Below, piece after piece: positions 1,933 through 58,637 of a DNA stretch of 64,000 nt (the first letter of the stretch is position 1; every line of letters begins with the position of its first letter). The stretch is from Mesostigma viride. Taxonomy: Eukaryota; Streptophyta; Mesostigmatophyceae; Mesostigmatales; Mesostigmataceae. The notes under the pieces are model-generated. The model did no database searches. It worked only from the letters and a program-made list of their open reading frames with translations, and was not told the origin of the DNA. A program made the position numbers and the translations under genes. The stretch is taken from the NCBI GenBank assembly GCA_009746045.1, contig RPFO01000389.1, positions 2,377,638 to 2,441,637 on the forward strand, in the 5' to 3' direction.

Positions 1933-3282
1933 ATGCTTCGTAACACGCGCGGGAGCGGCAGCGGGAGCGGGGCGGGAGCGGGGGATGGCGGTGGTGAGGC
2001 AAGGGCAGACACAGGAGGCCCCGCCAACGTCGTGCCAGAGGGACAGGCGATCCCAACGGCAGAGGGCGTCAATGGCAGGAGGGCATCCAACCGGAAGAGG
2101 AAAGAGGTGGCACAAGGGGAGGAGCGTGCAGGGTGGCCAACCGACGGCGTGGTGCTGACGGGGGAGGGCCAGAATGATGCTGAACGTCAAGCACCTGGTA
2201 AGAGACCATGTGTGCCTGCGTCTGGTGTTCCTGCAGCTAGTGTTCCTGCGCCATTAGCACCTGTAGGAGCTGCTGTCATTGGCAGTGACCCTCGTGCTTT
2301 GCCTGGGACTAGACCTCATATGAGTGCTGTGGCTGTGATGAATGGCCAGAAGCCTCTCAAGCCTCCTGTGGGACAGGAAGAGCTAGACAAGTGGTTGGAG
2401 GATATGGAGCTAGTTTCATGCTCTGTAGATCCCACTGTCAACCTTGTGCAGGTATTCCACACATCCACGACTAATAGGGATTCCAGTGAGCGTGTGAGGG
2501 ACAAGGCTAGGCAAGCTGTCAAGGACAAGCTGACTTGGTCTCAGTTCCTAGAGGGCCTACGTCAGGAGTTCTCTGATAAGGTACTCAACCTCACTAATCA
2601 CTATAAGCTCAGCTATGATACCTTTGAGATCAAGGGCACAATAGCTGAGGAGCTGCAGCGGCTCACACGCATCAGGGAGAAGGGGGCCAAGCATGGCTTC
2701 AATCTGACTGACAGAGCAGTGGCAGATTACTTCCTGGATCGCATGGGGCTGAGTGTGGATGGGAGAAATGCAGCTAGGATGTTTGCTGATCAGACAGATG
2801 GGACGTGGCCAGCCTTGCAAAAGGTTATATTTAATATCCGTCCATCTGACAATGCTGCTTGCAAGGCAATCCAGGTGACTGGTGCCCCTTCAGCCTCCGC
2901 TCATCAGGTCCATGGTGACGCCCCTGGGCAGGGTGCTCAGGGAGAAACCAGACCTAGTAGGCGTCAGAGGGCTAACAGGCGCAGGCAGAATGGTAACCAG
3001 GGTGGCAAGGGCCAGCAGCAGGGATCCAAAGGCAAGGGTCAGCAGCAGGCTGGTGGTCGCCAGGGTGGTCAGCAGAACAAGGGTGGCCAAGGGCAAGGCA
3101 AGAGCCAGGGCCAGGGCACCCAGGCCAGTCAGAGCAGCCAGAACCAGGGTGGCCTGAAGAAGACTGCTGCTGGGAAGGATGACAAATGCTTTGGATGTGG
3201 CAGGACGGGTCATTGGCGACGTGACTGCCCAGACCAGGCCAAGTCTGCTGGAGCAGGCTCTGGCCAGGTGGGTAAGCCATGA
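1933..3282 (+). CDS. gag: Gag (capsid-nucleocapsid) of A1
   Basis: 449 residues from the ATG at 1933 (context ataATGc, shared by gag of A2, A3 and B). The N-terminal 100 residues are Gly/Ser/Glu-rich and disordered. Residues of about 130-320 form a helical capsid-like region (GTRPHMSAVAVMNGQ, then WLEDMELV and YFLDRMGLS). Then follows a Gln/Gly/Lys-rich linker and one CCHC zinc knuckle, CFGCGRTGHWRRDC, at residues 419-432. The product would package element RNA. The frame ends at TGA 3280-3282, but pol continues in the same frame seven bases later. In element B the same position reads TGG (Trp). The intact frame suggests that the progenitor was functional. Confidence 0.85.
   Translation: MLRNTRGSGSGSGAGAGDGGGEARADTGGPANVVPEGQAIPTAEGVNGRRASNRKRKEVAQGEERAGWPTDGVVLTGEGQNDAERQAPGKRPCVPASGVPAASVPAPLAPVGAAVIGSDPRALPGTRPHMSAVAVMNGQKPLKPPVGQEELDKWLEDMELVSCSVDPTVNLVQVFHTSTTNRDSSERVRDKARQAVKDKLTWSQFLEGLRQEFSDKVLNLTNHYKLSYDTFEIKGTIAEELQRLTRIREKGAKHGFNLTDRAVADYFLDRMGLSVDGRNAARMFADQTDGTWPALQKVIFNIRPSDNAACKAIQVTGAPSASAHQVHGDAPGQGAQGETRPSRRQRANRRRQNGNQGGKGQQQGSKGKGQQQAGGRQGGQQNKGGQGQGKSQGQGTQASQSSQNQGGLKKTAAGKDDKCFGCGRTGHWRRDCPDQAKSAGAGSGQVGKP
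3280..3282 (+). other. In-frame TGA between gag and pol (candidate readthrough stop)
   Basis: Gag (from 1933) and pol (from 3289) are in the same reading frame and are separated only by TGA followed by CTT. All A copies that cover the site carry the same TGA (minus strand near 13123 in A2; 21603-21605 in A3). Element B reads through this position as Trp but has its own in-frame stop, TAA, at 35606-35608. A single stop separating gag and pol is a known way to set Gag:Pol ratio in some retroviruses; applying that here is inference. Confidence 0.45.
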
Positions 3283-3288
3283 CTTGAG

Positions 3289-6200
3289 ATGTTGTCCCCT
3301 GTAAATAGTCAATCACCCCTAGTGGGACGAACAGTTGTACATAGTAACGGGGGTGTCCCTCTTGTGCAGCAGCAAGGGGTTGGGAATGATGAGGTGCTTC
3401 CACTCAATGATTGCAATAACGCTGCTGCAGCAGTGGAATTCCCTGTGCCTGTGGCAGGTGCAGGGTCTCCAGTTGTTGGGGTTGGCTCTGGGAGTCAAGC
3501 CGCCAGACTGGAAGGACCTGCAGCTTCTGTGGGAACCGGAGCTGGCTCTGGGAGCCGAGCTACCTTGGAGGAGGTCCCTGGAGCAAGAGAACAGCAGGTG
3601 GGTCGTGCTATCCCAAGCACACAGTCTTTGTCACGTTCCTCTCTGTGCAGCCAGGCTGACAGGGGGTTGAGCTATGCTCAGGCTGGAAACACTCTACACC
3701 ATATCTTTGGCCATTCTAAGCAGGCAGAGATGTTTGCTTGGAAGATTGGCAAGGAGCCTTTACTAGCTCGTCGTCTGTCCCAACTCAGTCCTCACAGGAG
3801 GACTGAGTTGACAATTTTCAACCGCGTGTAGCGACTAGGTGGGGGGTCCATCCCAAATGTTTTGATGTGGATCGGGGGTGTACTAGATGTCATTTTGTTG
3901 GCAAAAATACTGCATATGTGAAAACTTGACCCGAACACATGAAAATTACACGGACGTTGGGCACCCCCTCGCGAATTTGCATTTTTCGGGATAAGAACGA
4001 GTGGGAAAAATTCAATCAAATCCTGGTGCATGAAGAAAAAATATAGGCATGTAAACAATATAGTTCTTGAAACGTGGCAAAAAACTGGGCTCGATTTGGC
4101 CACTGCAACTGCCTGAAACAATTAAAAAACTCTCAGTCCTCAGGATAGGAATGGGGCTTTTGCTAACTTTGCTAGCATGTAAGTGCGGTCATACTACACA
4201 TCACCGTGGCCACCAACCATCCCAATCAACTCATTTCCCTTCAAGCATTACAGGACAACACACTTGCATCATCATACTTCAGGTATATCATACCTTATCA
4301 TGCAGTGAGAGCCTATGCATCCATGTAGGGAATGGGCTTGGATACCTACCAACAAAGGGTTATGTTATAAGTGTCAACCACCAATATAATGGGTAGGTTA
4401 AGCATATTTCCACTGTTTCTAACAACAATAGATATGGCTATAACTGTTTTTCCTTGCCATGATGTGGCCAACATAGTTGCTGGCACATGATGGCAGTGGT
4501 TTGTCACCAAGACTTTTCACTCACCCGTAAAAGCTTGAATGCACCCTTGACGCAGCCCGTGGCCACACAATCATGCAGTATGAACGTAGCAAAAGAATAA
4601 CTAACATCTATGAAGGTGTTGAAACCTGCACAGCTCCTAAAACCCTGCACAACTACACTGGGTTAAGGCAAATGCCTGCTAACATCATCTGAAAAGGGGG
4701 TTTTAGAGAGGGGCAGGCAACGGTCAAGAAAGAGCATCAAGACTTGAACCTGACAACGCCTCGCAAGCTTAAACTCATGTACGAACATCAAGAAACGAAG
4801 AGGCAACGATTATCCGGCTTTACCTGGCACGGCTGGCGTTACCTTGGCCCAGGCGGTGCCCGCAAAAGTGGCACTTTGCGGCACATAGACCATGACGTGA
4901 CAGAATGGTCGAAATCATCAAATCTATACTGTCACTCAATTTATTCTAATACAATGCATGTTAAAATGTAGAAAGAAACCTATCAGCCATTGAAATTGCG
5001 CCGGAAAGCAAGCGCAGTCATCAATTCCGTCAACCTGCCTTATCGCAGTTTTTTCCAGCAAGAACAGTGCCGACACCGGGTAAATCGCACCCCCGCGAGC
5101 TATAAATTGACTTTTATCATCTTTAGAGCATGTTAAATCTATTTCCTGAGTTTGGACAGCTAACTCGTCCGCAAACGTAAACTGCATGCATGGGCGCGAG
5201 CCGCCATGGCTAGGTCGTGCATTTCCGGAACTCGCGTTTCACGTGGAAAAGTACCCTTACCACCTGTACTTTGACCGTACATTTAGCCGCTCATACCAAA
5301 TCCAAAAAAATCCCAAAAATATGTCCAAGAAAGATCTTTTCACGTAGTATTTGAATAAATTTTGAGAGAATTTTTTTGTCAAACATTCTGACCGGGGCGA
5401 ATTTTCTACGAAACCCAAAAACTCGGTCCTCTAGAGAGGACTGAGTTCAACTCAGTCCTCCGTAGAGGACCAGAGACAGACGACGAGCTAGAGGCCTGCA
5501 GTGCAGCTGCTCAGAATTGTGTCTGTCAGGAGAATGCTGTTCGCCTCCCACAGTCCCATGCCAGAGAACCTGCTAGAGAGCGGGGGATATCCAGGTGGAC
5601 ATCCAACACATCAGGGGCATGTATCTGTTGGTGGGGGTGGATAGGTTTAGCAGATATAGGTTGCTGACCATTCTTCCTGGAATGCAGGAGCATCAGCTGT
5701 TGATGGGTCTCCAGTCTTTGTTGCCAGGCTTTGGGGTGTACACCAAGGTGCAAGCTGACTTGCAGTTTGACTGCTTGATCAAGCTGGCTGACCAGCTTCC
5801 TTGTAAGTTGGTAGTGGTCCCTAGGGAATCCCATGGGCAGCAGGGAGCTGTAGAGAGATCTATACGTGAAGTTAAAACAGTGGTGCTAGCAGCTAAGAGT
5901 GTGCCTGTTGTGGCATCAGCTCTAGAGAAAGCAGCTTGGTGTAAGGGGATTGAGGAGCAGCTTAACCACAGGGTAACCTATTACTATGATGGTGTGGCAG
6001 TCTCTCCCCTGGCATTGCAGTTTGGTATGCTATCACAGGACGTGGTGGCAGCCTGCCTGAAGAAGGCAGACAGGGTGTTTTCCAGATTGAGGCGTAAGGA
6101 CAAGGGTTGGAAAATGCTGAGGCCCCAGGTGGGACTGAGGGTCAGGATGTGGAAGGAACCATCATTACCAGGCAAGCGTGGCAAGTGGCAAGATGGGCAG

Positions 6201-8600
6201 GTTACCCATGTTGAAGAAACTAACCATTCTTGTCTGGTGGCTTTGGAGAGTAATCCCAAGCACGTGTACAGGCTATCCTGGGCTCACGTCAAGGAGAGAA
6301 GGCCAACTGCAATCTGGCCTGAAGACGGCCCTGATCCTCCCTTGGAGGGAGATGAGCAGGATGAGAGCCAGGCAGCAGATGCTAACCCACCATGCTTGGA
6401 TTATGGTCTGTCCTGGATGGATGAGGGTGAGCAGGAGTCTGCTGAGACGTCTGTCACAAGGCCAGAGGTGGCCAGGGCTGCACCACAGTCCAGGGGGCTG
6501 CTTATGGCGGACATCATTCGAGCTCTGCAGAACAGCAAGCGTGATCCCAAGGTATCTAAGCTCACGGGATGGGGGTCATGTGGGGCACCAGCACTAGAAG
6601 TGGATACCAACTCGCAGGTGTCCATTCTAAGGGTAGAGGATGCTGCAGGCTTGCAGTGGTCATCCCCTAGCTGCCTAGCTGTGTCTGATTTCTCTGGGAA
6701 TGTGTCCATGAAGATCTTGGGAGAAGTGAGTGTGCCTATCCTGGGGGTACCCACCACGTTCAGTGTGATTGAAGGGTATCAGGGGCCTGCCATTCTAGGT
6801 CAGAACTTCTTGTGCTTACCAGGGGTGAGGATATCCTCTGAGGAGCTAGCATTAGAAGGGCAGGGCCGCCTTCCCTTGCAGAGATATCGCTACTCCCAGG
6901 GTCTTAGTGTGGCTGTAAGGGCTGTGAGGGGTCTAGAGGCAGAGGGTCCTGATACAAAGGAGCCCATTGCTGGGGACCTGCTGATCCTCCCTACTACGTT
7001 TGACCCACGTGAGTTGGGTGTGCAGAGGTACCAGATCCCAGGAACGAGTCCTGTACCTTGGCGCAAGCTAGTGGAGATGATGCAAAGCCCCAAGATGGCT
7101 AAGGCATGGACTCTTGGCTTTGTTGCTTCTGGGCATGAGTGGATAGTTGCCAACTGTGCAGAGCCTGTGGATGTCCTCCCTGAGGATCACCAGCTGCTCA
7201 GGTTGATGTTTGTCCTCAAGCTCAAGGAGGTAGATGGCGTGCAGGTGCCACATGTTAGACCAGTTGTGACTGAGTACCATGGCACTGGACAGTTAGCAGA
7301 TGAGGAGCTTTACACACCAGGGATGCTGCATGATACATGGAGGATTTTGTTGTGCATTTATTTGTCTTTTCTGCAGAAGGGGATACCCTATAGCTCTGTG
7401 TTGGTAGATTTCAAGAGGGCTTTTCTTAAGGGTGATCAGCAGGAAGCACAGGATACTTGGCGCACAATACCCCCTTTCTTTGTTAAGGTGCCTGCAGTGT
7501 GGAGGGCAGAGCTGAAGACGAGGTATTTGAGGATTCTCAAAGGCGTGGAAGGCCTTAGATCGAGTCCCATCATCTGGAGGAAGAGCTTGGAGAAGTACCT
7601 CAGGTCTGTCTGTGGTCTCTCAGTCTCTCCAGTTGATCCTTGTCTGTTTCAGGGTAGCTATGAGGGGCTGCCAGCGTTTGCCTCCCTGCATGGTGATGAT
7701 CTGCATCTCCTGGGCCATCCCACTTGGCAAGAGTTGACTCTGGCCAAGATCCAGCAACGGTTTGAACTGGGTAAGATCCAGTACATGGTTGAGAATGAGC
7801 CCATGGTGTTTTGTGGAATGCAGGCGACCTTGGTCCATCAGCAGGGTACATGGTCCATCCAGCTGGAGGGTGGTAAGGATTATCCTCAGCAGATCATAGA
7901 TGCCTTGCAGGAGCCCCTCACCCAGGCCAGATGTGCAACAATACGAGGTATGTTGGCATGGCTGGCCAGCATTTGTGCTCCTGACCTGTTGGTCCTGAGT
8001 CGGTTGACCGATTCCCAACTGGTTGAGGTGGGTGCTGAGAGAGTGGTAGAGGCTGTTCGCATGTCTCCCCCTCTCATGCTGGGTCCTTTGGATTTGTACA
8101 GGCCTTTTGACATGATGCTCTATGTGGACAGTTCTATGGATAGTAGAAAGGTCACAGAGGTCAGGGGCCGTGCAGCAGCATTAATATCCCTGGTGCAGGA
8201 ACAGTCCTCTCTGGTCTGCTGGTACAGTCGGTTGCAAAACAGGGTAACTCCCAGCAGTGACATTGCTGAGTGCAGGGCAATCTGTGAAGGGCTTCATACT
8301 GCTCTTTACTTGAGGGAGCTATTTTACCAGCTATGTCAAGTGGCTTCCTGTCGGTTGCAGATGCACACACTGGTAAGAACTGACAGCATGGGCATGGTGC
8401 AGTTTGTGCACAGGCAGCTGGCCAGGAGCAGGGACCTTGATTATTTGTTGCTCAAGGAAATGTCTTGCTTAGCTAACATTGAACATGTGGCTGGCGTGGA
8501 CAACCCTGCAGATGCTCTCACCAAGCTGGAGGAGAAGGCTGAGCTGCAATACCCTTTGCTTCGTGGGCTCATGGCCTCCAAGGGGGGAGGGCCAGAGTAG
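3289..8600 (+). pseudogene. pol: Pol of A1 (INT-PR-RT-RNase H), interrupted
   Basis: Domains in order: a Pro/Gly-rich linker; an integrase zinc-binding region (LHHIFGH, then a Cys pair lying beyond the insertion); integrase core with VDIQHIRG, QADLQFD and GAVERSIREVK as likely D, D, E; an integrase C-terminal region near 6100-6300; a retropepsin-like domain with DTNS at 6603-6614 and ILGQNFL at about 6792-6812; RT with VDFKRAFLKGD at about 7408 and HGDD at 7689-7700; copia-type RNase H with YVDSS, IAECRAI, RTDSMGM and ADALTK; stop TAG at 8598-8600. It is broken by the insertion at 3767-5487 and by loss of one G in the run near 5582. From 5595 onward the frame is open for about 1,000 codons. 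Confidence 0.85.
3767..5487. mobile_element. 1.7-kb non-autonomous TIR DNA element inside A1 pol
   Basis: Copies A2 and A3 lack this segment, so it is an insertion. It starts CTCGTCGTCTGTC at 3767 and ends with the exact reverse complement at 5475-5487. CTAG flanks both sides (3763-3766 and 5488-5491). Because CTAG is palindromic, the ends can also be read as a TA duplication with a 14-base inverted repeat beginning GCTCGTC. Just inside, both ends carry further inverted copies of a GAGGACTGAGTT hairpin motif (about 3785-3815 and 5425-5465). No convincing coding region is seen; 3832-5420 is AT-rich filler. TA duplication would suggest the Tc1/mariner superfamily, but no transposase is present to test this. 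Confidence 0.8.
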
Positions 8601-9530: not shown

Positions 9531-12500
9531 CTACTCTGGCCCTCCCCCCTTGGAGGCCATGAGCCCACGAAGCAAAGGGTATTGCAGCTCAGCCTTCTCC
9601 TCCAGCTTGGTGAGAGCATCTGCAGGGTTGTCCACGCCAGCCACATGTTCAATGTTAGCTAAGCAAGACATTTCCTTGAGCAACAAATAATCAAGGTCCC
9701 TGCTCCTGGCCAGCTGCCTGTGCACAAACTGCACCATGCCCATGCTGTCAGTTCTTACCAGTGTGTGCATCTGCAACCGACAGGAAGCCACTTGACATAG
9801 CTGGTAAAATAGCTCCCTCAAGTAAAGAGCAGTATGAAGCCCTTCACAGATTGCCCTGCACTCAGCAATGTCACTGCTGGGAGTTACCCTGTTTTGCAAC
9901 CGACTGTACCAGCAGACCAGAGAGGACTGTTCCTGCACCAGGGATATTAATGCTGCTGCACGGCCCCTGACCTCTGTGACCTTCCTACTATCCATAGAAC
10001 TGTCCACATAGAGCATCATGTCAAAAGGCCTGTACAAATCCAAAGGACCCAGCATGAGAGGGGGAGACATGCGAACAGCCTCTACCACTCTCTCAGCACC
10101 CACCTCAACCAGTTGGGAATCGGTCAACCGACTCAGTACCAACAGGTCAGGAGCACAAATGCTGGCCAGCCATGCCAACATACCTCGTATTGTTGCACAT
10201 CTGGCCTGGGTGATGGGCTCCTGCAAGGCATCTATGATCTGCTGAGGATAATCCTTACCACCCTCCAGCTGGATGGACCATGTACCCTGCTGATGGACCA
10301 AGGTCGCCTGCATTCCACAAAACACCATGGGCTCATTCTCAACCATGTACTGGATCTTACCCAGTTCAAACCGTTTCTGGATCCTGGCCAGAGTCAACTC
10401 TTGCCAAGTGGGATGGCCCAGGAGATGCAGATCATCACCATGCAGGGAGGCAAACGCTGGCAGCCCCTCATAGCTACCCTGAAACAGACAAGGATCAACT
10501 GGAGAGACTGAGAGACCACAGACAGACCTGAGGTACTTCTCCAAGCTCTTCCTCCAGATGATGGGACTCGATCTAAGGCCTTCCACGCCTTTGAGAATCC
10601 TCAAATACCTCGTCTTCAGCTCTGCCCTCCACACTGCAGGCACCTTAACAAAGAAAGGGGGTATTGTGCGCCAAGTATCCTGTGCTTCCTGCTGATCACC
10701 CTTAAGAAAAGCCCTCTTGAAATCTACCAACACAGAGCTATAGGGTATCCCCTTCTGCAGAAAAGACAAATAAATGCACAACAAAATCCTCCATGTATCA
10801 TGCAGCATCCCTGGTGTGTAAAGCTCCTCATCTGCTAACTGTCCAGTGCCATGGTACTCAGTCACAACTGGTCTAACATGTGGCACCTGCACGCCATCTA
10901 CCTCCTTGAGCTTGAGGACAAACATCAACCTGAGCAGCTGGTGATCCTCAGGGAGGACATCCACAGGCTCTGCACAGTTGGCAACTATCCACTCATGCCC
11001 AGAAGCAACAAAGCCAAGAGTCCATGCCTTAGCCATCTTGGGGCTTTGCATCATCTCCACTAGCTTGCGCCAAGGTACAGGACTCGTTCCTGGGATCTGG
11101 TACCTCTGCACACCCAACTCACGTGGGTCAAACGTAGTAGGGAGGATCAGCAGGTCCCCAGCAATGGGCTCCTTTGTATCAGGACCCTCTGCCTCTAGAC
11201 CCCTCACAGCCCTTACAGCCACACTAAGACCCTGGGAGTAGCGATATCTCTGCAAGGGAAGGCGGCCCTGCCCTTCTAATGCTAGCTCCTCAGAGGATAT
11301 CCTCACCCCTGGTAAGCACAAGAAGTTCTGACCTAGAATGGCAGGCCCCTGATACCCTTCAACCACACTGAACGTGGTGGGCACCCCCAGGATAGGCACA
11401 CTCACTTCTCCCAAGATCTTCATGGACACATTCCCAGAGAAATCAGACACAGCTAGGCAGCTAGGGGATGACCACTGCAAGCCTGCAGCATCCTCTACCC
11501 TTAGAATGGACACCTGTGAGTTGGTATCCACTTCTAGTGCTGGTGCCCCACATGACCCCCATCCCGTGAGCTTAGATACCTTGGGATCACGCTTGCTGTT
11601 CTGCAGAGCTCGAATGATGTCCGCCATAAGCAGCCCCCTGGACTGTGGTGCAGCCCTGGCCACCTCTGGCCTTGTGACAGACGTCTCAGCAGACTCCTGC
11701 TCACCCTCATCCATCCAGGACAGACCATAATCCAAGCATGGTGGGTTAGCATCTGCTGCCTGGCTCTCATCCTGCTCATCTCCCTCCAAGGGAGGATCAG
11801 GGCCGTCTTCAGGCCAGATTGCAGTTGGCCTTCTCTCCTTGACGTGAGCCCAGGATAGCCTGTACACGTGCTTGGGATTACTCTCCAAAGCCACCAGACA
11901 AGAATGGTTAGCTTCTCAACATGGGTTACCTGCCCATCTTGCCACTTGCCACGCTTGCCTGGTAATGACGGTTCCTTCCACATCCTGACCCTCAGTCCCA
12001 CCTGGGGCCTCAGCATTTTCCAACCCTTGTCCTTACGCCTCAATCTGGAAAACACCCTGTCTGCCTTCTTCAGGCAGGCTGCCACCACGTCCTGTGATAG
12101 CATACCAAACTGCAATGCCAGGGGAGAGACTGCCACACCATCATAGTAATAGGTTACCCTGTGGTTAAGCTGCTCCTCAATCCCCTTACACCAAGCTGCT
12201 TTCTCTAGAGCTGATGCCACAACAGGCACACTCCTAGCTGCTAGCACCACTGTTTTTACTTCACGTATAGATCTCTCTACAGCTCCCTGCTGCCCATGGA
12301 TTCCCTAGGGACCACTACCAACTTACAAGGAAGCTGGTCAGCCAGCTTGATCAAGCAGTCAAACTGCAAGTCAGCTTGCACCTTGGTGTACACCCCAAAG
12401 CCTGGCAACAAAGACTGGAGACCCATCAACAGCTGATGCTCCTGCATTCCAGGAAGAATGGTCAGCAACCTATATCTGCTAAACCTATCCACCCCCACCA

Positions 12501-13116
12501 ACAGATACATGCCCCTGATGTGTTGGATGTCCACCTGGATATCCCCCCGCTCTCTAGCAGGTTCTCTGGCATGGGACTGTGGGAGGCGAACAGCATTCTC
12601 CTGACAGACACAATTCTGAGCAGCTGCACTGCAGGCCTCTAGCAAAGGCTCCTTGCCAATCTTCCAAGCAAACATCTCTGCCTGCTTAGAGTGGCCAAAG
12701 ATATGGTGTAGAGTGTTTCCAGCCTGAGCATAGCTCAACCCCCTGTCAGCCTGGCTGCACAGAGAGGAACGTGACAAAGACTGTGTGCTTGGGATAGCAC
12801 GACCCACCTGCTGTTCTCTTGCTCCAGGGACCTCCTCCAAGGTAGCTCGGCTCCCAGAGCCAGCCCCGGTTCCCACAGAAGCTGCAGGTCCTTCCAGTCT
12901 GGCGGCTTGACTCCCAGAGTCAACCCCAACAACTGGAGACCCTGCACCTGCCACAGGCACAGGGAATTCCACTGCTGCAGCAGCGTTATTGCAATCATTG
13001 AGTGGAAGCACCTCATCATTCCCAACCCCTTGCTGCTGCACAAGAGGGACACCCCCATTACTATGTACAACTGTTCGTCCCACTAGGGGTGATTGACTAT
13101 TTACAGGGGACAACAT
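9531..13116 (-). pseudogene. pol: Pol of A2, two frameshifts in the integrase half
   Basis: Same domain order as A1. The uninterrupted join LLEACSAAAQNCVCQE shows the integrase zinc-binding Cys residues that A1 has split; the pair is C-V-C here and C-C-V-C in B. Frameshifts occur near 12300 (loss of a C before the ATGGGCAG motif) and near 11920. The distal 787 codons (11894-9531), covering protease (DTNSQVS), RT (HGDD) and RNase H (ADALTK), are open. The stop is TAG. Because A3 shares both frameshifts, they predate the duplication or come from a shared assembly source. Confidence 0.82.
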
Positions 13117-20209: not shown

Positions 20210-20260
20210 GCCTGAGTGGGTTCCAGCAACCATATCTGCGTGTGTCTGTGGTATTCTATA

Positions 20261-21605: not shown

Positions 21606-21611
21606 CTTGAG

Positions 21612-24600
21612 ATGTTGTCCCCTGTAAATAGTCAATCACCCCTAGTGGGACGAACAGTTGTACATAGTAATGGGGGTGTCCCTCTTGTGCAGCAGCAAGG
21701 GGTTGGGAATGATGAGGTGCTTCCACTCAATGATTGCAATAACGCTGCTGCAGCAGTGGAATTCCCTGTGCCTGTGGCAGGTGCAGGGTCTCCAGTTGTT
21801 GGGGTTGACTCTGGGAGTCAAGCCGCCAGACTGGAAGGACCTGCAGCTTCTGTGGGAACCGGGGCTGGCTCTGGGAGCCGAGCTACCTTGGAGGAGGTCC
21901 CTGGAGCAAGAGAACAGCAGGTGGGTCGTGCTATCCCAAGCACACAGTCTTTGTCACGTTCCTCTCTGTGCAGCCAGGCTGACAGGGGGTTGAGCTATGC
22001 TCAGGCTGGAAACACTCTACACCATATCTTTGGCCACTCTAAGCAGGCAGAGATGTTTGCTTGGAAGATTGGCAAGGAGCCTTTGCTAGAGGCCTGCAGT
22101 GCAGCTGCTCAGAATTGTGTCTGTCAGGAGAATGCTGTTCGCCTCCCACAGTCCCATGCCAGAGAACCTGCTAGAGAGCGGGGGGATATCCAGGTGGACA
22201 TCCAACACATCAGGGGCATGTATCTGTTGGTGGGGGTGGATAGGTTTAGCAGATATAGGTTGCTGACCATTCTTCCTGGAATGCAGGAGCATCAGCTGTT
22301 GATGGGTCTCCAGTCTTTGTTGCCAGGCTTTGGGGTGTACACCAAGGTGCAAGCTGACTTGCAGTTTGACTGCTTGATCAAGCTGGCTGACCAGCTTCCT
22401 TGTAAGTTGGTAGTGGTCCCTAGGGAATCCATGGGCAGCAGGGAGCTGTAGAGAGATCTATACGTGAAGTAAAAACAGTGGTGCTAGCAGCTAGAGTGTG
22501 CCTGTTGTGGCATCAGCTCTAGAGAAAGCAGCTTGGTGTAAGGGGATTGAGGAGCAGCTTAACCACAGGGTAACCTATTACTATGATGGTGTGGCAGTCT
22601 CTCCCCTGGCATTGCAGTTTGGTATGCTATCACAGGACGTGGTGGCAGCCTGCCTGAAGAAGGCAGACAGGGTGTTTTCCAGATTGAGGCGTAAGGACAA
22701 GGGTTGGAAAATGCTGAGGCCCCAGGTGGGACTGAGGGTCAGGATGTGGAAGGAACCGTCATTACCAGGCAAGCGTGGCAAGTGGCAAGATGGGCAGGTA
22801 ACCCATGTTGAGAAGCTAACCATTCTTGTCTGGTGGCTTTGGAGAGTAATCCCAAGCACGTGTACAGGCTATCCTGGGCTCACGTCAAGGAGAGAAGGCC
22901 AACTGCAATCTGGCCTGAAGACGGCCCTGATCCTCCCTTGGAGGGAGATGAGCAGGATGAGAGCCAGGCAGCAGATGCTAACCCACCATGCTTGGATTAT
23001 GGTCTGTCCTGGATGGATGAGGGTGAGCAGGAGTCTGCTGAGACGTCTGTCACAAGGCCAGAGGTGGCCAGGGCTGCACCACAGTCCAGGGGGCTGCTTA
23101 TGGCGGACATCATTCGAGCTCTGCAGAACAGCAAGCGTGATCCCAAGGTATCTAAGCTCACGGGATGGGGGTCATGTGGGGCACCAGCACTAGAAGTGGA
23201 TACCAACTCGCAGGTGTCCATTCTAAGGGTAGAGGATGCTGCAGGCTTGCAGTGGTCATCCCCTAGCTGCCTAGCTGTGTCTGATTTCTCTGGGAATGTG
23301 TCCATGAAGATCTTGGGAGAAGTGAGTGTGCCTATCCTGGGGGTGCCCACCACGTTCAGTGTGGTTGAAGGGTATCAGGGGCCTGCCATTCTAGGTCAGA
23401 ACTTCTTGTGCTTACCAGGGGTGAGGATATCCTCTGAGGAGCTAGCATTAGAAGGGCAGGGCCGCCTTCCCTTGCAGAGATATCGCTACTCCCAGGGTCT
23501 TAGTGTGGCTGTAAGGGCTGTGAGGGGTCTAGAGGCAGAGGGTCCTGATACAAAGGAGCCCATTGCTGGGGACCTGCTGATCCTCCCTACTACGTTTGAC
23601 CCACGTGAGTTGGGTGTGCAGAGGTACCAGATCCCAGGAACGAGTCCTGTACCTTGGCGCAAGCTAGTGGAGATGATGCAAAGCCCCAAGATGGCTAAGG
23701 CATGGACTCTTGGCTTTGTTGCTTCTGGGCATGAGTGGATAGTTGCCAACTGTGCAGAGCCTGTGGATGTCCTCCCTGAGGATCACCAGCTGCTCAGGTT
23801 GATGTTTGTCCTCAAGCTCAAGGAGGTAGATGGCGTGCAGGTGCCACATGTTAGACCAGTTGTGACTGAGTACCATGGCACTGGACAGTTAGCAGATGAG
23901 GAGCTTTACACACCAGGGATGCTGCATGATACATGGAGGATTTTGTTGTGCATTTATTTGTCTTTTCTGCAGAAGGGGATACCCTATAGCTCTGTGTTGG
24001 TAGATTTCAAGAGGGCTTTTCTTAAGGGTGATCAGCAGGAAGCACAGGATACTTGGCGCACAATACCCCCTTTCTTTGTTAAGGTGCCTGCAGTGTGGAG
24101 GGCAGAGCTGAAGACGAGGTATTTGAGGATTCTCAAAGGCGTGGAAGGCCTTAGATCGAGTCCCATCATCTGGAGGAAGAGCTTGGAGAAGTACCTCAGG
24201 TCTGTCTGTGGTCTCTCAGTCTCTCCAGTTGATCCTTGTCTGTTTCAGGGTAGCTATGAGGGGCTGCCAGCGTTTGCCTCCCTGCATGGTGATGATCTGC
24301 ATCTCCTGGGCCATCCCACTTGGCAAGAGTTGACTCTGGCCAGGATCCAGAAACGGTTTGAACTGGGTAAGATCCAGTACATGGTTGAGAATGAGCCCAT
24401 GGTGTTTTGTGGAATGCAGGCGACCTTGGTCCATCAGCAGGGTACATGGTCCATCCAGCTGGAGGGTGGTAAGGATTATCCTCAGCAGATCATAGATGCC
24501 TTGCAGGAGCCCATCACCCAGGCCAGATGTGCAACAATACGAGGTATGTTGGCATGGCTGGCCAGCATTTGTGCTCCTGACCTGTTGGTACTGAGTCGGT

Positions 24601-25196
24601 TGACCGATTCCCAACTGGTTGAGGTGGGTGCTGAGAGAGTGGTAGAGGCTGTTCGCATGTCTCCCCCTCTCATGCTGGGTCCTTTGGATTTGTACAGGCC
24701 TTTTGACATGATGCTCTATGTGGACAGTTCTATGGATAGTAGGAAGGTCACAGAGGTCAGGGGCCGTGCAGCAGCATTAATATCCCTGGTGCAGGAACAG
24801 TCCTCTCTGGTCTGCTGGTACAGTCGGTTGCAAAACAGGGTAACTCCCAGCAGTGACATTGCTGAGTGCAGGGCAATCTGTGAAGGGCTTCATACTGCTC
24901 TTTACTTGAGGGAGCTATTTTACCAGCTATGTCAAGTGGCTTCCTGTCGGTTGCAGATGCACACACTGGTAAGAACTGACAGCATGGGCATGGTGCAGTT
25001 TGTGCACAGGCAGCTGGCCAGGAGCAGGGACCTTGATTATTTGTTGCTCAAGGAAATGTCTTGCTTAGCTAACATTGAACATGTGGCTGGCGTGGACAAC
25101 CCTGCAGATGCTCTCACCAAGCTGGAGGAGAAGGCTGAGCTGCAATACCCTTTGCTTCGTGGGCTCATGGCCTCCAAGGGGGGAGGGCCAGAGTAG
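21612..25196 (+). pseudogene. pol: Pol of A3 (INT-PR-RT-RNase H), frameshifted
   Basis: Domain order as in A1 without the insertion, so it shows the undisturbed path from linker through the integrase zinc region (LHHIFGH, then CVC) into the D, D, E core. Frameshifts occur near 22430, 22490 and 22815. The segment 22833-25196 is open and encodes the integrase tail, protease (DTNSQVS at about 23199), RT (HGDD at about 24285) and RNase H. The stop is TAG at 25194-25196. The protease-after-integrase order is unambiguous here because nothing interrupts the gene. Confidence 0.85.
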
Positions 25197-25650
25197 ACCA
25201 AACAGCCTTGCTCTAGGTGGGAGGCATCCCAGTGGGCTGGGCAGCCACGTGGTGGCTGACAGCAGGTCCTTCAGAGTTCAGACACACTCTGCTGGACAGG
25301 GGTCAGGGTGGAGTCACTCCCCTGGCTGAGAATTTCGCCTGGCTCTGTCATGGAGCTGCAGAAGAGTCTTAAGGACTTTGTAATGGGCCTTGGGTCTTCA
25401 TGGAATGGACCCTGCAAGGGCAGCCCAAGTGTTGGCTCTAACAGGTTGCTGTACATTTGTATATATTCTCTGTAACCAACCTGTTGCATGCTAATAAAAT
25501 CCCTGGTTGTGTGACCATGTTGGACGTGGTTGCCAGGGGCCTCACTATGGGTTATACTCCTTTATAATAAAACATAATCTTGTTATTGTCATGTCTTGTT
25601 GTTTGTGATGCTCAGTTCCAGGAGCTGATCCAAACCTGGAGGAGATGGGG

Positions 25651-26788
25651 TGGGGTTCGATTCCCCAGCTGACCTCAGCCTGGCATGTATGAATCCTGAG
25701 TTTATCCCTCAGTGAGGACATGGGCTCCCCATGTGTTGGCTAACATTTGTCAGGGCTCTCTCAGTCTTTGGAAGGATTTAAAAGATAAAGGAGGCTCCGT
25801 GGCGGGCGCCATATGAACGGGCGCCTGTGATAACTGGATGACCAGGAACTCACAATAGTACGTTCATGGACTCCTCTATCCAAACTCCTCTGACTAAGTG
25901 AAGACCTAACTTTAATCTACACCAGGTTCCCAAAGAAAGGGTTGGGATGTCATGTGGGTCAGAGGGCAACCTTTGAACCAATGAGCAGGCCTAGCTAATA
26001 TTTGGAGGCACCTCAGGTTCCAAAAGAAAAGGCAGGTCTGGTCTCTGGGAGGGATCAGATGTCTGAAGGCTTGTGGGGACAGTGGCTGATAGGTTCTCAG
26101 GCTGGTCCAAGCTCCAAAACAAGAAAGGGTTGGAGTTAGCATATTGGGGCACCAATGTGCTAGATGGATGCAGGTTGAGGAGACCTTTCCAACGCCGTGT
26201 CAACCGCCTAGAACAGACAAGGGACTAGAAAGTTATCAAGTCCCGAAGTACTGCCGACCGGTGGGCGAGGGCGGGGCACACTCAGGGCATAGTGGACAGG
26301 ACACGTGGCAGGCCGTGCCTGCACAGGCTTAGCCTGTACTCTCACGTGACTGGGACACAGTGTACTGAGGGCTCAACGGTACTGTGGCTAGTAGAAGCCA
26401 GTAACCAGCCAGCAGGTCTGCAAGGATGTAAGTCCTTGCAGGACTGTGGCAGGTCCTGTGCTGTCCTAGACACAGGATAGCCAGAGATTCCTGTATGCTG
26501 CCTGCAACAAGGATGCAGGGCAGCGATACGAGGCTCTGGCAATGTAGCGTTGCCCAGCGTTGCTCATGACCGAGGAACAAGGATGGAACGAGGTTGCATA
26601 TAGCTCGAGGCTCAACGAGGCAACGAGCGTCTTCACACACGAACCTTGGTCGTCACGACGAGTGGCGAGCCTATCGAGGGTCGTAGGCCTGGTGTGAGGA
26701 TAAAGGTTGCTAGCCAGCAGCCTAGGGTCATTCCAGCCGGCAAGGACCAGGAGCTCACATGCTCTGCTGACGAGTTGCTGCGCAAATC
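25651..26788 (+). repeat. Terminal-repeat block (putative 3' LTR) of A3
   Basis: Follows the purine-rich end of the 3' UTR. It opens with a perfect tRNA T-arm look-alike (TGGGG TTCGATT CCCCA, 25651-25667) and contains a TTTAAAAG TATA-like box near 25779. Its last 717 bases are identical in layout to window bases 1-717. Similarity stops at 26788, where element B' begins, which fixes the 3' end of the repeat at or close to this base. Confidence 0.62.
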
Positions 26789-30964: not shown

Positions 30965-31242
30965 GTCCAGGTTGTGAAATACGTGCGTATTCTCAAAATA
31001 AATACGGCAATACGCGTTTTTTGGGCCCCGACGTATTATACGCGTATTTGGTCCCGAATACGTGATTTGGACTTAGAAATTTTCGAGGTTCGAGCCGGGG
31101 CAGTGCTTGGCGCGAGGCCAGCCGGAACGTGGCGCGGCGCGTACCTCCCCCAAGATCTTCTACTATGCAAACTAGGCTCGATTACTACGAACTGGGCTTT
31201 TCGTCAGTCCTGAGTCCAGTCACTACGGTAATGACTTGGCAG

Positions 31243-35608: not shown

Positions 35609-35617
35609 ACACCCCAA

Positions 35618-38477: not shown

Positions 38478-38479
38478 GA

Positions 38480-38512
38480 CTGCGTGCGTGCGTGCGTGCG
38501 TGCGTGCGTGTG

Positions 38513-48378: not shown

Positions 48379-48838
48379 AGTTGGAATGCGTCTAGAGACG
48401 AAGGACAACTGTCGAAAGCTGGAAATGAGAATGACGATTGTATTAGCAATAATACAAGGAATGTGGTGAAAGCTTGAGGGCTCAGAATGGAACGTCTGGG
48501 CAAACTCGGGTGCTGCGGCACTCCCCAGTGCTACGCCTATATGCCTATGGCAGTGCTCACTGCAGCACCTGCCAGTGGACAACTGTACACTGCAATGCCA
48601 TGCGACCACGTCACTAGCAACCAGCTAGCACTCGGCCCGTCAGACCCGGCTACACCGGATCTGGCGGGTCGAGCTAGCGCCTAGGAACAGTCTGGCACTA
48701 ACTGCACGTCAGTCCACATGACGCCTCAGTACCGTACGCCCTGCCGTACAGTACTGATGTGTCCCGCTCAGCCGCGGTAGGCAATACGCGGCGCGCAGGC
48801 CGGAAATCCGTGTGTCAGCCTAAGCATCGCATCTAACT
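48379..48838 (-). repeat. 3' LTR of C
   Basis: 460 bp, identical to 58178-58637 as far as I can read except for one A/G difference near 48590. The ends are short inverted repeats (AGTT...AACT), not the usual TG...CA. Confidence 0.92.
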
Positions 48839-49948: not shown

Positions 49949-52589
49949 TCAAGTGGTACAACAGCTGATATTGTCAGCTGCCTGCTGAGGCACTTTAGTG
50001 AGTGCATCAGCAGCGTTGTGTTTGTCCTCCACGTGACGGGTGGACTCCCAGTAGGTGGACTCCTGTTTACCACCCAGTCAAGATCAGTGTGCACAGCATA
50101 GGGTTAGCAAGGAAACTGAGGACTGACTGACTGTCAGTGAGCAAGTGTGCCACCACCCCAGCATTGCTGCCTGCTTGCATCTGCAACCAAACCAGCACAT
50201 GATTCAAGTACCTGGCATGAAGCACTGCTGACACCACTGCCCTGCACTCAGCAGCATTGCTGCTGACAGCCTTGCGTCTATGCAACCGGCTGTACCATGA
50301 AATGAGAGACAAGGGTGCATCATCATTCTGCACAAAATACAAGCCTGACTCCCTTGCCTGCAACTTGGTAATCTGCCTGGACTCCATGGAACTATCCATC
50401 ATAGCTTGGATGTGAATGGTTTTGTGGAGATCCAAGGAGTGCAAGATAAGGGGAGGGCCTTCCTGGAGAGTTTTGGTGATGGCTTTGTGACCTACTTGCA
50501 TCAAGACATCATCATCAACTCTGCTAACCACAGCCAGGTGAGGTGCACACGTTGAGCACAACCACCCCAGCTTGCCTCTAATGGTAGGACAGGCTCCAGG
50601 TTTGATTTTTGTTTGCAAAACCTCCAAGCAGCTGTGCATGTAATCATTGGGAGAGTAAAGTGCACACACCCACTGGTTTTGATGCTGCTGGAGTTGTAAC
50701 ATTGTGCCACAAAATTTTATGGCAGTGGTGCCCAGCTCTACTTGCTTGCCAATCTCAAAATGCTGTGACACTTGTTGAATAAAATCATCACAGCACGCCT
50801 TGGCCCAGCAATCAGCTGATCATCCCCATGCCACACAAAGGTGAGTATGCCATGAGGGTGTGGGACCACAAAGAAGCAAGGGTCTATGTCATCATATCTA
50901 GCCCCTAGCTTTTCAAACACAGCCTGAGCTGACATCCTGAAAATGCGAGGAGCTGATTGCAGCCCTTCAACACCTATGTTAGCTTTCAGGTACTGCTGAG
51001 GGATGTGTTTTGCCCAAACTCTGGGAGTGGAGACTACATACACCTGACCATGCCACACTTGTTGTGCTATCTCAGGTGAGCCTTTCAAGAAAGCCCTTTT
51101 AATGTCTGTAGCCTTACATACATAGTCATCCCCATCATTGAGATGACCCACAAAGACAGACAGCAATATTTTAAGGAGGTTTGCTGAATGCCTGGCGTGT
51201 ACAACTCTGCCTCTGTCAGATCAGTGGTGCCCTTGAACTCTGTCACACAAGGTCTAGCATGGAAAGATGACTGACCCATCTGCTGCTGGCTTATGTTTAC
51301 ACACAAACTTCAGGCGCAAGTGCTTGCACCCTGCAGGCTTTTTGTCAATAGGTGTGACAGGTGGAGTGTGAGAGGGCTAAGAGGATCTGGCACTACCCAT
51401 TCTTCCCTGGCCTTGTTGAAGGCCTCCACCCATTTTAGGAAACCTATGTGTGTGCGACAGTCTTGCTCTATCTGTTCATAAGAAAGAGGAGACATTTTAG
51501 CCACATCATGCTTGCCCAATCCAAAGGAGGTGGGATGAAGTTTTTGGTTATGAACCAAGTCTGCCACACAAGGTTCTTGCCCTGGGGCATACTTGGGGTA
51601 GCAAATTTTACAGAAGCAATGTTGGTGTTAAGAAGTTTTTGAAGAGAAATTTTGAAATGATTCAGATCAACACCACCCAGGTCCTGGATGGATAGTCTAT
51701 CACTGGAGATAATGACACCAGGGTAACAGAGAAAAGGATCCCCCAACAAGCATTCCCTTTATAACCTTCCAATACCTGAAAAGGGTGGGGATACCAAGTA
51801 TAGTCAACATGACCTGACCTTGTACCTTGAGGGATGACTGCCCTGAGAAATCAGCCACATGGTGCCAGGGTGAAGGTTCCAAAGGCATATAGGGCACATG
51901 CAGCCAGGGCACTGATAATGCTGACCTGGGCTTGTGTGTCCACTGCAACCATAAATGGGTTATTGTCATTCTGCCCAACCTTCCCCACCTTAGCTGATCC
52001 TGCAGCAGTTTGAGCTTTAGCTCTATGAGCTGATTGTAAAATGCGAACAGCTTCTGCTAGGCTGCGTTTGGAAGGTGCAGCTAGTGGCTGAGCTATGTTC
52101 ACAATTGAAGAGGTGAGAGGTTGCTGATCACCTGTTTTGCCTATGTAACCCTCTGCTGCAGGGGGCCAAGCCTGCCGTGACTGCCTACAATCATCAAGGG
52201 TGACCTGGGTGTCACAGTGGGTGTGGCTCTCACACTCACCAGTGGGTGTTCCAAACAACCACTCACTGGGCAACGCTGGGATGCCAGGCAATTGTACAGG
52301 GCTGTCGGCCAACAGCTCTTCCTCCTCTGCCACGTCTGACACAGTTGGAAAATACAATTTCATCCTGTGAGGTGAACACCTGTGAATCTTACCCGTGTCA
52401 TTGTGTTTAATCAGCACTGTCCTGCCAGTGGTGTTAAACTTTAGGATGGTGGCTGGCCCATGCCAGTTACCCACCTTGCCTAGTCCCGACTCCTTGTAGA
52501 ATAGGACCTGATCCCCTTCTCTGAAGGTGGGACGTGGATGCTTTGCATCCTTGACAGCTAACCTGCTAGTGTCCCAATGTCCAGGAAAA
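49949..52589 (-). pseudogene. pol: Pol of C: INT tail, protease, RT, RNase H (decayed)
   Basis: In sense order: an integrase C-terminal region (GDQVLFYKESG, GPATILKF), a protease with DTQA at 51929-51940 followed by QVSII, a partial ILG-like motif, the ELYTPG block, RT with DIKRAFLKG and HGDD at 50819-50830, and RNase H with MDSSMES, AAECRAV, LTDSQSV and ADALTK. The stop TGA is at 49949-49951. At least four frameshifts occur (near 51840, 51300, 51160 and 50070). The order of domains is the same as in A, and protease and RT motifs carry the same unusual residues. Confidence 0.82.
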
Positions 52590-54331
52590 GGCCTCAATTG
52601 AGGCCTTTTTTATATTGGGTGTTGCATGCAGCCAAACAACTTTTTTCCAAATATGAGCATAGGCCATGCATTATTATGATTGTTTTGGGGTTGCCAGCAC
52701 TTAACATCAGTCATATAGCCCCAATACCTATTTAATTATGATTTAACAAAACAGGGTGTCGCTGCGGTGGCACCATTTACACAGCATGACCATAGATGCA
52801 AGCAGAAAAAAGGCGGTAGTACTTAGTTCCCTCTGCCTCTTAGGTGTCTTTTGGACCTTTCGAGGTTTCCCCACAACACGGTAAGCATGGCATGACATGG
52901 CATGCTCCCCAAGGGACGCCTCATACACAATTGCACGGCCGGGGCTGTCGCGCAGCACTGCAGGCAGCAACAGCCTGCCATGGGTATTGCACGTAACCAT
53001 GAGGAATCCAAAGCCTCTATTACAAACACGCACAAGGATCATGCATTATAATGATAGGTGTGACCTTCCAAGCGCTTAGCTTCACTCACATAGCCCCAAT
53101 ATCTACGTTGTTACGGTATATTCTGACAGGGGTTTGCTGCCGCGGCAGCAGATGAACAGCACATGGCAAGATATACAAGCATAACTGGACACCATTTGCA
53201 CTGTCTTCTAGACCTCTAGCTTGATTTTAAGCTTTGCAAGGGTTGCCTGAGACATGGCCAGCATGGCAGGAACTGCCATGCTTCTCATGGAAAGCAGACA
53301 CGTCTACACGGCGGGGGCCAGCCGCAGAGCACTGCACGAAGTACTATAACCTGCATTACGTCACAACGGCACTAGGCGCCGATAGGCAGCTAAAAACTGA
53401 CGATATCACAAGCAAATCGATGACATTACCTTTCTACCACCAGGACGCACTTACAGTTCACACCCCTCACACCCGGGATCACTAAGCACGCATATGCGCT
53501 GGCGCTGAACGTGGCTGCATCAGAAAAGCTGTTCAAGCTCGGCGTTTTCAAGTTGTCCGGAAGCGATGCAGCCCGCAAATCTGGCCGGACAGACGCTCCA
53601 TGCGTCGTCCATTGACGTATGAAAGCGGCTGCAGCGGCCTCACCAGCGCTGTTCGCATAATGGCGCTCCCATAGCTGGGGCGCGCGCGCGTTTATTGTCC
53701 GCATCCCAGTTTTTCCTAGCTAAAAACACCCCTTCCTCTACCTACGGATGCACGCCAAAAGGCTCGAAAATAGCCAGCGCCCCTTTAGTCACAGCTGCCC
53801 CAACATCCCCCCCCGCCGTCCCGCTAGTCTCCTTCCCAGCATATCGAAGCACCGGCCTGCTGGCAAGCGCACTATCAACGCCGATTACGCCCCATCTGAA
53901 TTTCACTAACCTGGCATTCAGCACACAAATAACGACCCCACGAATTTATAAATCGACTTTTGACACATTTAGCGGTCGGGCTAGCTTCAAGGATAATTTA
54001 TCTGCCCAACGCGCTCCATACTGCTCGAAATGATGCACGAACGTGGCCATACGGTCCATTTTACTCGAGGCCGCCATGGTCGTGCATTCGTGAAAATTCC
54101 TCGTCCCGTTGCACGAAAGTGGCCAAAATAGGTACTTTTCCACCTCACGTATTTTTCAGTAACCGTCGACCCCTGTCGACCCCAACGGGTCAGGACGCTC
54201 AGCACATGTACCAGATTCGCGCCACTGGGGCCGGACGACCCATAGGACCGGTCCTTCCCGCCAAAATACCGTACTTTGTGAGATCTTGGTAAAAAAGGCC
54301 TCAATTGAGCCAAAAGGCCTCAATTGAGGCC
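52590..54331. mobile_element. 1.7-kb TIR element with palindromic ends inside C pol
   Basis: Splits the C integrase coding region (VYLSR on one side, PFPGHWDTSR on the other). Both ends carry GGCCTCAATTGAGGCCTTTT in inverted orientation (52590-52609 and 54312-54331), itself a palindrome, and the right end has an additional partial copy (54288-54311). No target duplication can be fixed with confidence. The interior has two diverged tandem copies of a unit of about 370 bases (about 52665-53035 and 53036-53400) and no credible ORF. Short patches resemble the element at 3767-5487 (TATAAAT, GACTTTT; GCCGCCATGG). Confidence 0.72.
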
Positions 54332-58177: not shown

Positions 58178-58637
58178 AGTTGGAATGCGTCTAGAGACGA
58201 AGGACAACTGTCGAAAGCTGGAAATGAGAATGACGATTGTATTAGCAATAATACAAGGAATGTGGTGAAAGCTTGAGGGCTCAGAATGGAACGTCTGGGC
58301 AAACTCGGGTGCTGCGGCACTCCCCAGTGCTACGCCTATATGCCTATGGCAGTGCTCACTGCAGCACCTGCCAGTGGGCAACTGTACACTGCAATGCCAT
58401 GCGACCACGTCACTAGCAACCAGCTAGCACTCGGCCCGTCAGACCCGGCTACACCGGATCTGGCGGGTCGAGCTAGCGCCTAGGAACAGTCTGGCACTAA
58501 CTGCACGTCAGTCCACATGACGCCTCAGTACCGTACGCCCTGCCGTACAGTACTGATGTGTCCCGCTCAGCCGCGGTAGGCAATACGCGGCGCGCAGGCC
58601 GGAAATCCGTGTGTCAGCCTAAGCATCGCATCTAACT
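58178..58637 (-). repeat. 5' LTR of C
   Basis: The same 460-bp sequence as 48379-48838. Near-identity of the two LTRs indicates a recent insertion. The LTR overlaps open frames that lack ATG starts; they are not counted as genes. Confidence 0.92.

What the first reader, a model, noticed from the sequence alone, without database searches (positions are those of the whole stretch)
21612..25196. Copia-related Pol with protease between integrase and RT
In the uninterrupted A3 pol (and A1, A2) the order is integrase (HHCC-like finger, D-D-E core, C-terminal region), then a retropepsin-like domain (DTNSQVS, later ILGQNFL), then RT and RNase H. Ty1/copia is PR-INT-RT-RNH and Ty3/gypsy is PR-RT-RNH-INT. 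The region between the Gag knuckle and integrase holds only a low-complexity linker without a D-S/T-G motif. Element C shows the same order in a very different sequence, so this is not a local rearrangement. It may define a distinct clade of algal or protist LTR elements.
Basis: partly seen in the sequence, partly recalled or inferred. Interest (0 to 1): 0.88.

Follow-up and report, generated by a model that had tools for sequence, protein, structure and literature searches.

The report
Copia-like retrotransposons with displaced protease
Several families of jumping genes in one eukaryotic (probably algal) genome carry their protein-cutting enzyme after the DNA-inserting enzyme instead of before it, and in a different style, an arrangement not found in the descriptions of known families that could be searched here.

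Summary
The order Gag knuckle - integrase (IN) - retropepsin-like domain (PR) - Copia-type RT - RNase H is real. Copy A1 has IN core to RNase H in one 1001-aa open frame (5595-8600). The order stands in 8 of 8 clade loci that span it, from four families: A and C of the window, E and F from the 200 kb around it. Four canonical Copia loci of the same genome have PR before IN. The displaced PR is not visibly the Copia PR moved: it is of the ILG type, and a four-family profile finds only retropepsins in the PDB (6 of 6 hits, two kinds of protein, E 0.31-0.46; reversed control 0 of 1). The catalytic triplet is DT[NQ], not D[ST]G, in all four families. IN is not Copia-like by profile either. Activity and spread beyond this genome are untested.

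The parts
5595..8600 (+). A1 pol open frame (1001 aa): IN core from D1, IN C-terminal region, PR, RT, RNase H; the HH part of the finger lies upstream of a 1.7-kb insert
3187..3228 (+). A1 Gag CCHC zinc knuckle
   Evidence: Pfam zf-CCHC 3.1e-5 in ORF 1885-3282; motif CFGCGRTGHWRRDC
3289..3693 (+). A1 linker between Gag knuckle and HHCC, no detectable protease
   Evidence: A1; HMM tests on the A3 counterpart
3694..3714 (+). A1 HH of the HHCC-like finger (LHHIFGH); the Cys part lies beyond the insert 3767-5486
6549..6902 (+). A1 retropepsin-like domain; catalytic motif VDTNSQVSI 6600-6626, DFSG 6687-6698, AILGQNF 6789-6809
7161..7905 (+). A1 reverse transcriptase (DFKRAFL 7407, HGDD 7689)
   Evidence: Pfam RVT_2 20.2 bits, below its cut-off of 31.6; host Copia RT-RNase H HMM 32.0 bits on the A1 frame against at most 2.1 in 500 shuffles
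8121..8597 (+). A1 RNase H (YVDSSMD, AECRAI, ADALTK)
21612..22451 (+). A3 linker (with VDSGSQ, D codon at 21807), HH 22017 and IN core up to a frame break
22498..23193 (+). A3 middle of IN in another frame
22833..25196 (+). A3 end of IN, PR (VDTNSQVSI 23196, AILGQNF 23385), RT (24003, 24285), RNase H (ADALTK 25104)
9531..11894 (-). A2 end of IN, PR, RT, RNase H (inverted near-identical copy of A3)
12277..13116 (-). A2 linker, HHCC-like finger and IN core
26134..26788 (+). A3 3' LTR, begins AGTTAGCATATTGG
48379..48838 (-). C 3' LTR (99.8% identical to the 5' LTR)
58178..58637 (-). C 5' LTR; a TGGACTGAAAA primer-binding-like stretch follows directly
54320..56134 (-). C Gag knuckles, linker, HHCC (55018) and IN core (D1 54835)
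51851..52597 (-). C IN C-terminal region, linker and start of PR (VDTQAQVSI at 51943)
51672..51885 (-). C rest of PR in other frames (DFSG 51852; LLGDPFLCYPGV)
50738..51166 (-). C reverse transcriptase (DIKRAFL, HGDD)
50067..50771 (-). C end of RT and RNase H

Best explanation
These are LTR retrotransposons of an old lineage whose RT-RNase H is of Copia kin. Their Gag-Pol is laid out Gag(CCHC)-IN-PR-RT-RNase H. The protease is a retropepsin of the ILG type (gypsy/retrovirus/ASPRV1-like), not the LLS-type protease of Copia, and it sits directly before RT. Shown: the domain order in four families, the conservation of the PR-like domain, and the absence of a detectable second protease. Inferred: that the PR dimerises and cuts the polyprotein, freeing Gag and IN upstream and RT-RNase H downstream, using an active site D-T-[NQ] in which the usual glycine is replaced; and that a Copia-like ancestor lost its PR before IN and gained or kept a clan AA protease between IN and RT.
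For: Order in 8 of 8 clade loci that span it, four families, two of them in long open frames: A1 1001 aa and F 1321 aa from knuckle to the end of RT. Host Copia PR before IN in 4 of 4 canonical loci read (the same four trained the HMM). PR profile of four families: 6 of 6 PDB hits are retropepsins (four ASPRV1 chains, aligned DTQAQVS to DSGAQVS and LLGENF to IIGTDVL; two 'protease, tethered dimer' chains), E 0.31-0.46; reversed control: one hit, not a protease. Pfam's only match is gag-asp_proteas in the C copy: E 0.058 in 1 of 5 alignment members and 0.1 in the whole ORF over model positions 6-89 of 92. Catalytic D to ILG G is 65 residues in A, C and F (positions). Between A and C of L014, PR is the best-kept domain: 50% identity over 76 aa against 33-37% in IN, RT and RNase H. 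IN profile: the 7 best of 20 PDB hits are chains named Integrase or Pol protein, E 0.021-0.8. RVT_2 passes its cut-off in C copy L014 (40 bits against 31.6). Constraint: pN/pS 0.06 (C RT, 5 silent and 1 replacement change) and 0.09 (C IN, 10 and 3); A-E PR 0.42, much like RT 0.43, silent sites near saturation.
Against: No single E-value for PR reaches 0.05; the case rests on the pattern of hits and the spacing. In one search no stretch of the two tethered dimers passes on its own, and four of the six hits are one protein. A1 PR alone matched no protease in Pfam and only one of four PDB hits was a protease (E 1.5); the F frame matched no Pfam family at all. AlphaFold on A plus C pieces gave pLDDT 36.5. 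The missing glycine of the triplet could mean an inactive enzyme. A-copy linkers hold DSG in 3 of 5 copies seen, E has DSG and F has DTG, which could be remnants of an N-terminal PR. RVT_2 is below its cut-off in A (20.2 bits) and E (25.0). Constraint on the C stretch that holds the start of PR is weaker: pN/pS 0.36 (6 silent, 7 replacement).
Confidence: 0.82

Rival explanations
1. Ordinary Copia elements whose protease lies before IN but is too diverged to see (the DSG/DTG tetrads of the linkers); the DT[NQ] domain is something else.
For: VDSGS in A2, A3 and the L020 copy, LDTGAV in F, GDSGSE in E; the F linker is 201 aa, long enough for a PR.
Against: G replaces D in A1 and A4, and C has no tetrad. 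The A linker leaves only about 70 residues from the tetrad to HHCC. No Pfam match to a protease in 4 linkers, no PDB protease hit in the 2 linkers searched. Host Copia PR HMM: none of 7 A and C ORFs among the matches at E<=10, while 26 shuffles were, and no clade ORF at E<=0.5.
Confidence: 0.08
2. The DT[NQ]..ILG domain has a retropepsin fold but is catalytically dead (a structural or dimerisation module), and Gag-Pol is cut by another protease or not at all.
For: The glycine of the catalytic triplet, nearly invariant in clan AA (recalled), is N or Q in 4 of 4 families.
Against: D and T are kept in 4 of 4 families, together with the ILG motif, and the D-G spacing in the three families with PR in one frame. 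Canonical Copia PRs of this genome also vary at this position (DSAA in 3 of 4 loci), in families that have many near-identical RT rows.
Confidence: 0.2
3. The order arose by rearrangement, nested insertion or misassembly in one copy that was then amplified here.
For: The window is full of inverted and interrupted copies, with palindromic joints at 9050-9055 and 19103-19119.
Against: Four families, mostly 30-60% identical by domain, share the order with similar spacing, and the F frame is open across it.
Confidence: 0.03

Closest known systems
Ty1/Copia (Pseudoviridae), including four canonical loci of this same genome
   Same: RT-RNase H of the RVT_2 type, CCHC knuckle, LTRs, finger and D-D-E integrase before RT
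   Different: PR after IN, PR of the ILG type instead of LLS, IN spacing D-x29-31-[ED] instead of D-x35-E, HGDD in RT, LTRs of A and C beginning AGTTAG; RT parted from host Copia by a branch of 2.7 substitutions per site
Ty3/Gypsy (Metaviridae)
   Same: ILG-type PR placed directly before RT
   Different: IN lies before PR and not after RNase H; RT is RVT_2-like with no RVT_1 match in the Pfam scans of A, C of L014, E and F
Gmr1-like Gypsy elements
   Same: IN moved to before RT (PMC2774666, passage)
   Different: PR still precedes IN there, and RT is of Gypsy type
Retropepsins such as ASPRV1 and retroviral proteases
   Same: motif spacing and profile similarity
   Different: DT[NQ] in place of D[ST]G

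Membership tests
Ty1/Copia | RT of the RVT_2 type | tested here: met
   C copy L014 40 bits over cut-off 31.6; A 20.2 and E 25.0 below it; F none; host Copia RT-RNase H HMM 32.0 bits on A1 against at most 2.1 in 500 shuffles
Ty1/Copia | domain order PR-IN-RT-RNase H | tested here: not met
   IN-PR-RT-RNase H in 8 of 8 loci that span it
Ty1/Copia | PR with LLS/ILS motif | tested here: not met
   AILG in A, ALLG in C, E and F; the motif rule is from passages of PMC2774666 and PMC2642776; host Copia PRs have LLS
Ty1/Copia | IN catalytic spacing D-x35-E (rule recalled) | tested here: not met
   x29-31 in A, C, E, F against 35 in 4 of 4 host Copia loci
Ty1/Copia | flanked by LTRs | tested here: met
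   C LTR pair 99.8% identical; A LTRs; E and F not examined
Ty3/Gypsy | order PR-RT-RNase H-IN | tested here: not met
Ty3/Gypsy | RT of the RVT_1 type | tested here: not met
   no RVT_1 match in Pfam scans of A, C of L014, E, F
Ty3/Gypsy | ILG-type PR | tested here: met
Clan AA retropepsin | catalytic D-[ST]-G | tested here: not met
   DT[NQ] in 4 of 4 families
Clan AA retropepsin | fold or profile similarity over the whole domain | tested here: inconclusive
   6 of 6 PDB profile hits are retropepsins but E 0.31-0.46; AlphaFold uninformative
Clan AA retropepsin | proteolytic activity | not testable with these tools
   needs expression

The most novel reading that the evidence does not exclude
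The clade is a separate superfamily of LTR retroelements: Copia-like only in RT-RNase H, with an integrase and an ILG-type retropepsin of other origin in the order IN-PR-RT-RNase H, a modified DT[NQ] protease active site and AGTTAG LTR starts. It would be a mosaic of the main lineages, or a remnant of an order older than the Copia/Gypsy split.
Probability: 0.35. Interest if true: 0.85.

Novelty: new variant of a known kind. Interest (0 to 1): 0.68.

Why it matters
Pol domain order is one of the traits used to define LTR retroelement superfamilies. A 2009 census of integrase positions lists five states (downstream of PR; downstream of RNase H; truncated and reversed; lost; and upstream of gag in one caulimovirus) and says IN is downstream of PR in all known Copia elements (PMC2774666, passages). 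IN-PR-RT-RNase H would be a further state, conserved over deep divergence, with a protease and integrase that do not group with Copia. It bears on whether LTR retroelements evolved by swapping modules, and on how a polyprotein is processed when the protease does not separate Gag from integrase. The DT[NQ] triplet asks whether retropepsins tolerate loss of the active-site glycine.

Tried and rejected
Structure prediction of PR (A1, A3 and three C pieces): pLDDT 36.5, pTM 0.30, not used for any fold search. Single-sequence searches of A1: the PDB gave no protease for the whole frame (3 hits) and one protease among 4 hits for PR alone (E 1.5); Pfam gave none for PR. NCBIfam gave nothing relevant. 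Relatives elsewhere: three scans of viral contigs and two of bacterial/archaeal genome contigs found none; these collections are a poor place for eukaryotic elements. Idea that the A linker holds the Copia PR: rejected as above. Idea that IN is Copia-like: host Copia IN HMM no better than shuffles, hhalign probability 0.6% though the first aspartates are aligned. In one search the host IN HMM also gave weak hits on window:28486-28217 (E 0.032), L022:5927-6283 (0.11, overlapping F RNase H in another frame), L013 (0.15) and L011 (0.39), and the host PR HMM on other frames of L007 and L010 (0.43); not followed. The host PR test ran, but that script then stopped with an error at its IN step, redone; one of eight comparisons (A1 against A3) failed through a wrong frame and was dropped. 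Left out of the count of 8 loci because they do not span IN to RNase H: A4, the minus-strand 17266-18663 stretch, the second A stretch of L020, and the fragments L017 and L018. Ten paper searches (PMC open-licence papers only) showed no description of this order in their listings; those aimed at it were 12, 30, 72, 104, 112 and 129. Listings were partial (25 of 47; 10 of 17,398; 20 of 61; 15 of 16; 15 of 242, all for 'joint-protective' and the like). Papers seen in passages only: PMC2774666, PMC2642776, PMC2806351, PMC3587641, PMC12477816, PMC5963040, PMC11673190, PMC4700185; of PMC12440569 the abstract and two sections.
Full report
Setting. The window is G000:C1491:2377638-2441637 of a 440-Mb assembly in 2243 contigs. 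A short-chain dehydrogenase ORF at the right end (adh_short) looks to me like a light-dependent protochlorophyllide reductase; that is recalled, not tested, and is the only hint of an alga. Self-comparison shows four copies of an LTR element A (A1 + 1-9055, A2 - 16390-9050, A3 + 19103-26788, A4 + 29138-45634 with large inserts) and one element C (- 58637-48379) with LTRs 99.8% identical over 460 bases.

The observation. A1 carries a 1001-aa open frame, 5595-8600. In it stand the first IN aspartate, the second aspartate, the glutamate, an IN C-terminal region, VDTNSQVSI, DFSG, AILGQNF, the RT motifs DFKRAFL and HGDD, and RNase H ending ADALTK. The finger lies upstream, split by a 1.7-kb insert. 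C shows the same order in broken frames. A and C of the window are 34-36% identical in IN, 31-34% in RT and RNase H, and 26-29% around the broken PR.

More families. The genome search answered only once, so I read 200 kb around the window. tblastn with A and C pieces found another C copy (L014), a family E 43-62% identical to A by domain (L019), a family F 31-40% identical to A (L022), two A stretches (L020) and fragments (L017, L018). F has a 1321-aa open frame from the zinc knuckle to the end of RT; in the L014 copy PR is read in one frame up to its end region. There A and C share 50% of 76 PR residues. Across eight loci that span the region (A1, A2, A3, A of L020, C of the window, C of L014, E, F) the order is the same in 8 of 8. 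Single motifs were missed in two: HH in L020; the second D and ILG in the window's C. A2 and A3 are near-identical inverted copies, so the independent evidence is the four families.

Within-genome control. RVT_2 lists 150 strong Copia RTs in this genome (178 to 148 bits, the scored best of 1981 candidates). Four such loci were read (L006-L009): PR (DSAASSHM or DTGATYHM, then LLS) comes before the finger and IN in 4 of 4. The canonical order therefore exists beside the new one.

RT and RNase H are of Copia kin. RVT_2 scores 40 bits in C of L014 (over the cut-off), 25 in E, 20 in A; F matched no family. An HMM of the four host Copia RT-RNase H segments gives A1 32.0 bits against at most 2.1 in 500 shuffles; the window's C pieces get 10.7 and 2.0 bits. 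In an RT tree of eight sequences the new clade and host Copia are split with support 100 by a branch of 2.7 substitutions per site; C and F group with support 80, A and E stand apart from the rest with 84. The tree has no outside reference.

Integrase. A four-family alignment keeps D, D and E (D in F) with 29-31 residues between the last two, against 35 in 4 of 4 host Copia loci. The last residue is assigned by its motif G[AIM][VI][ED]R, which the broken A3 row does not reach in frame. A profile finds, as the 7 best of 20 PDB hits, chains named Integrase or Pol protein (retroviral, as I recall the entries; E 0.021-0.8), then 8 chains of PHD finger proteins 1 and 19 on the C-terminal region (their Tudor domains, recalled). 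Pfam rve is weak (E 0.0074 in C of L014, 0.013 in E, 0.024 in A3, 0.078 in an A1 piece, 0.17 in the window's C, none in F). A host Copia IN HMM does not see it (A3 1.1 bits, below many shuffles), and hhalign gives 0.6%. So it is most likely an integrase, but not recognisably a Copia one.

Protease. The alignment of the region shows VDT[NQ][SA][QS]VSI, DF[SA]G and A[IL]LG[QDE][NP]F (A: AILG; C, E, F: ALLG), with 65 residues from the catalytic D to the ILG glycine in A, C and F (E enters as two pieces). As a profile it finds six PDB sequences, all retropepsins: four of ASPRV1 over most of the domain and two 'protease, tethered dimer' chains (retroviral, recalled), E 0.31-0.46. Controls: the reversed alignment finds one unrelated enzyme; the host Copia PR profile finds nothing, so such a profile need not find retropepsins. 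Pfam's only match is gag-asp_proteas in the C copy, E 0.058 in 1 of 5 alignment members and 0.1 in the whole ORF. hhalign against host Copia PR finds no relation. ILG is described as typical of PRs other than Copia's (PMC2774666 and PMC2642776, passages). Each value alone is weak; together with the spacing they make a retropepsin the best reading. The triplet lacks its glycine in all four families; host Copias have A there in 3 of 4 loci, so this position is not fixed in this genome's proteases. AlphaFold on the window's pieces failed (pLDDT 36.5).

Upstream of IN. In A1 the linker is 135 aa from the start of ORF 3289, or 155 codons from the knuckle; it is 80 aa in C, 104 in E (open part) and 201 in F. 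A2, A3 and the L020 copy hold VDSGSQ there, A1 and A4 VGSGSQ; E has GDSGSE, F has LDTGAV. No protease match appears in Pfam for four linkers or in the PDB for the two searched, and neither PR HMM matches there. A remnant of an older N-terminal PR in A or F cannot be excluded.

How it probably works (inferred). Gag-Pol is made as one or a few frames. The PR, placed like a Gypsy or retroviral PR directly before RT, dimerises and cuts the polyprotein, including the Gag-IN border, which no longer has PR within it. Between the two C copies, changes are few: RT 5 silent and 1 replacement (pN/pS 0.06), IN 10 and 3 (0.09), RNase H 2 and 2 (0.28), the stretch from IN C-terminal region to the start of PR 6 and 7 (0.36). 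Between A and E, PR and RT are about equally constrained (0.42 and 0.43, silent sites near saturation); C-F RT 0.50. Activity itself is not shown.

Novelty. A 2009 census of integrase positions has no such state. Ten searches of open PMC papers showed none in their listings, some of which were partial; subscription papers, preprints and Repbase were not searchable. Diatom Copias are described as PR, IN, RT, RH (PMC2806351, passage), and Troyka as Gypsy order (PMC12440569, sections read). I call it a new variant of a known kind; a separate superfamily is the bold reading.

Noticed in passing
window 9050-9055 and 19103-19119: A1, A2 and A3 meet at palindromic joints, with an LTR shared in the middle of the minus-strand stretch (15677-16390); autointegration-like product or assembly artefact.
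   Followed up: no
window 26134, 29138, 48838: LTRs of A and C both begin AGTTAG instead of TG; C is followed by a TGG primer-binding-like stretch, A is not.
   Followed up: partly
L006, L007, L009 (PR region): Canonical Copia proteases of this genome read DSAA instead of DSGA in 3 of 4 loci.
   Followed up: partly
window 1876-1878, 3280-3282, 35606-35608: A Gag and Pol ORFs share one frame and are parted by single stops; the stop after Gag in A1 is W in A4, which has its own stop a few codons on.
   Followed up: no
window 3767-5486 and about 52600-54340: Inserts of about 1.7 kb inside IN of A1 and inside IN of C; L014 lacks the latter.
   Followed up: no
window 32278-33750: hAT-like transposase ORF (DUF659, 7e-14) within the A4 region.
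   Followed up: no
window 37359-38713, 41905-42907, 46756-48000, 62528-62842: Long simple and short tandem repeats.
   Followed up: no
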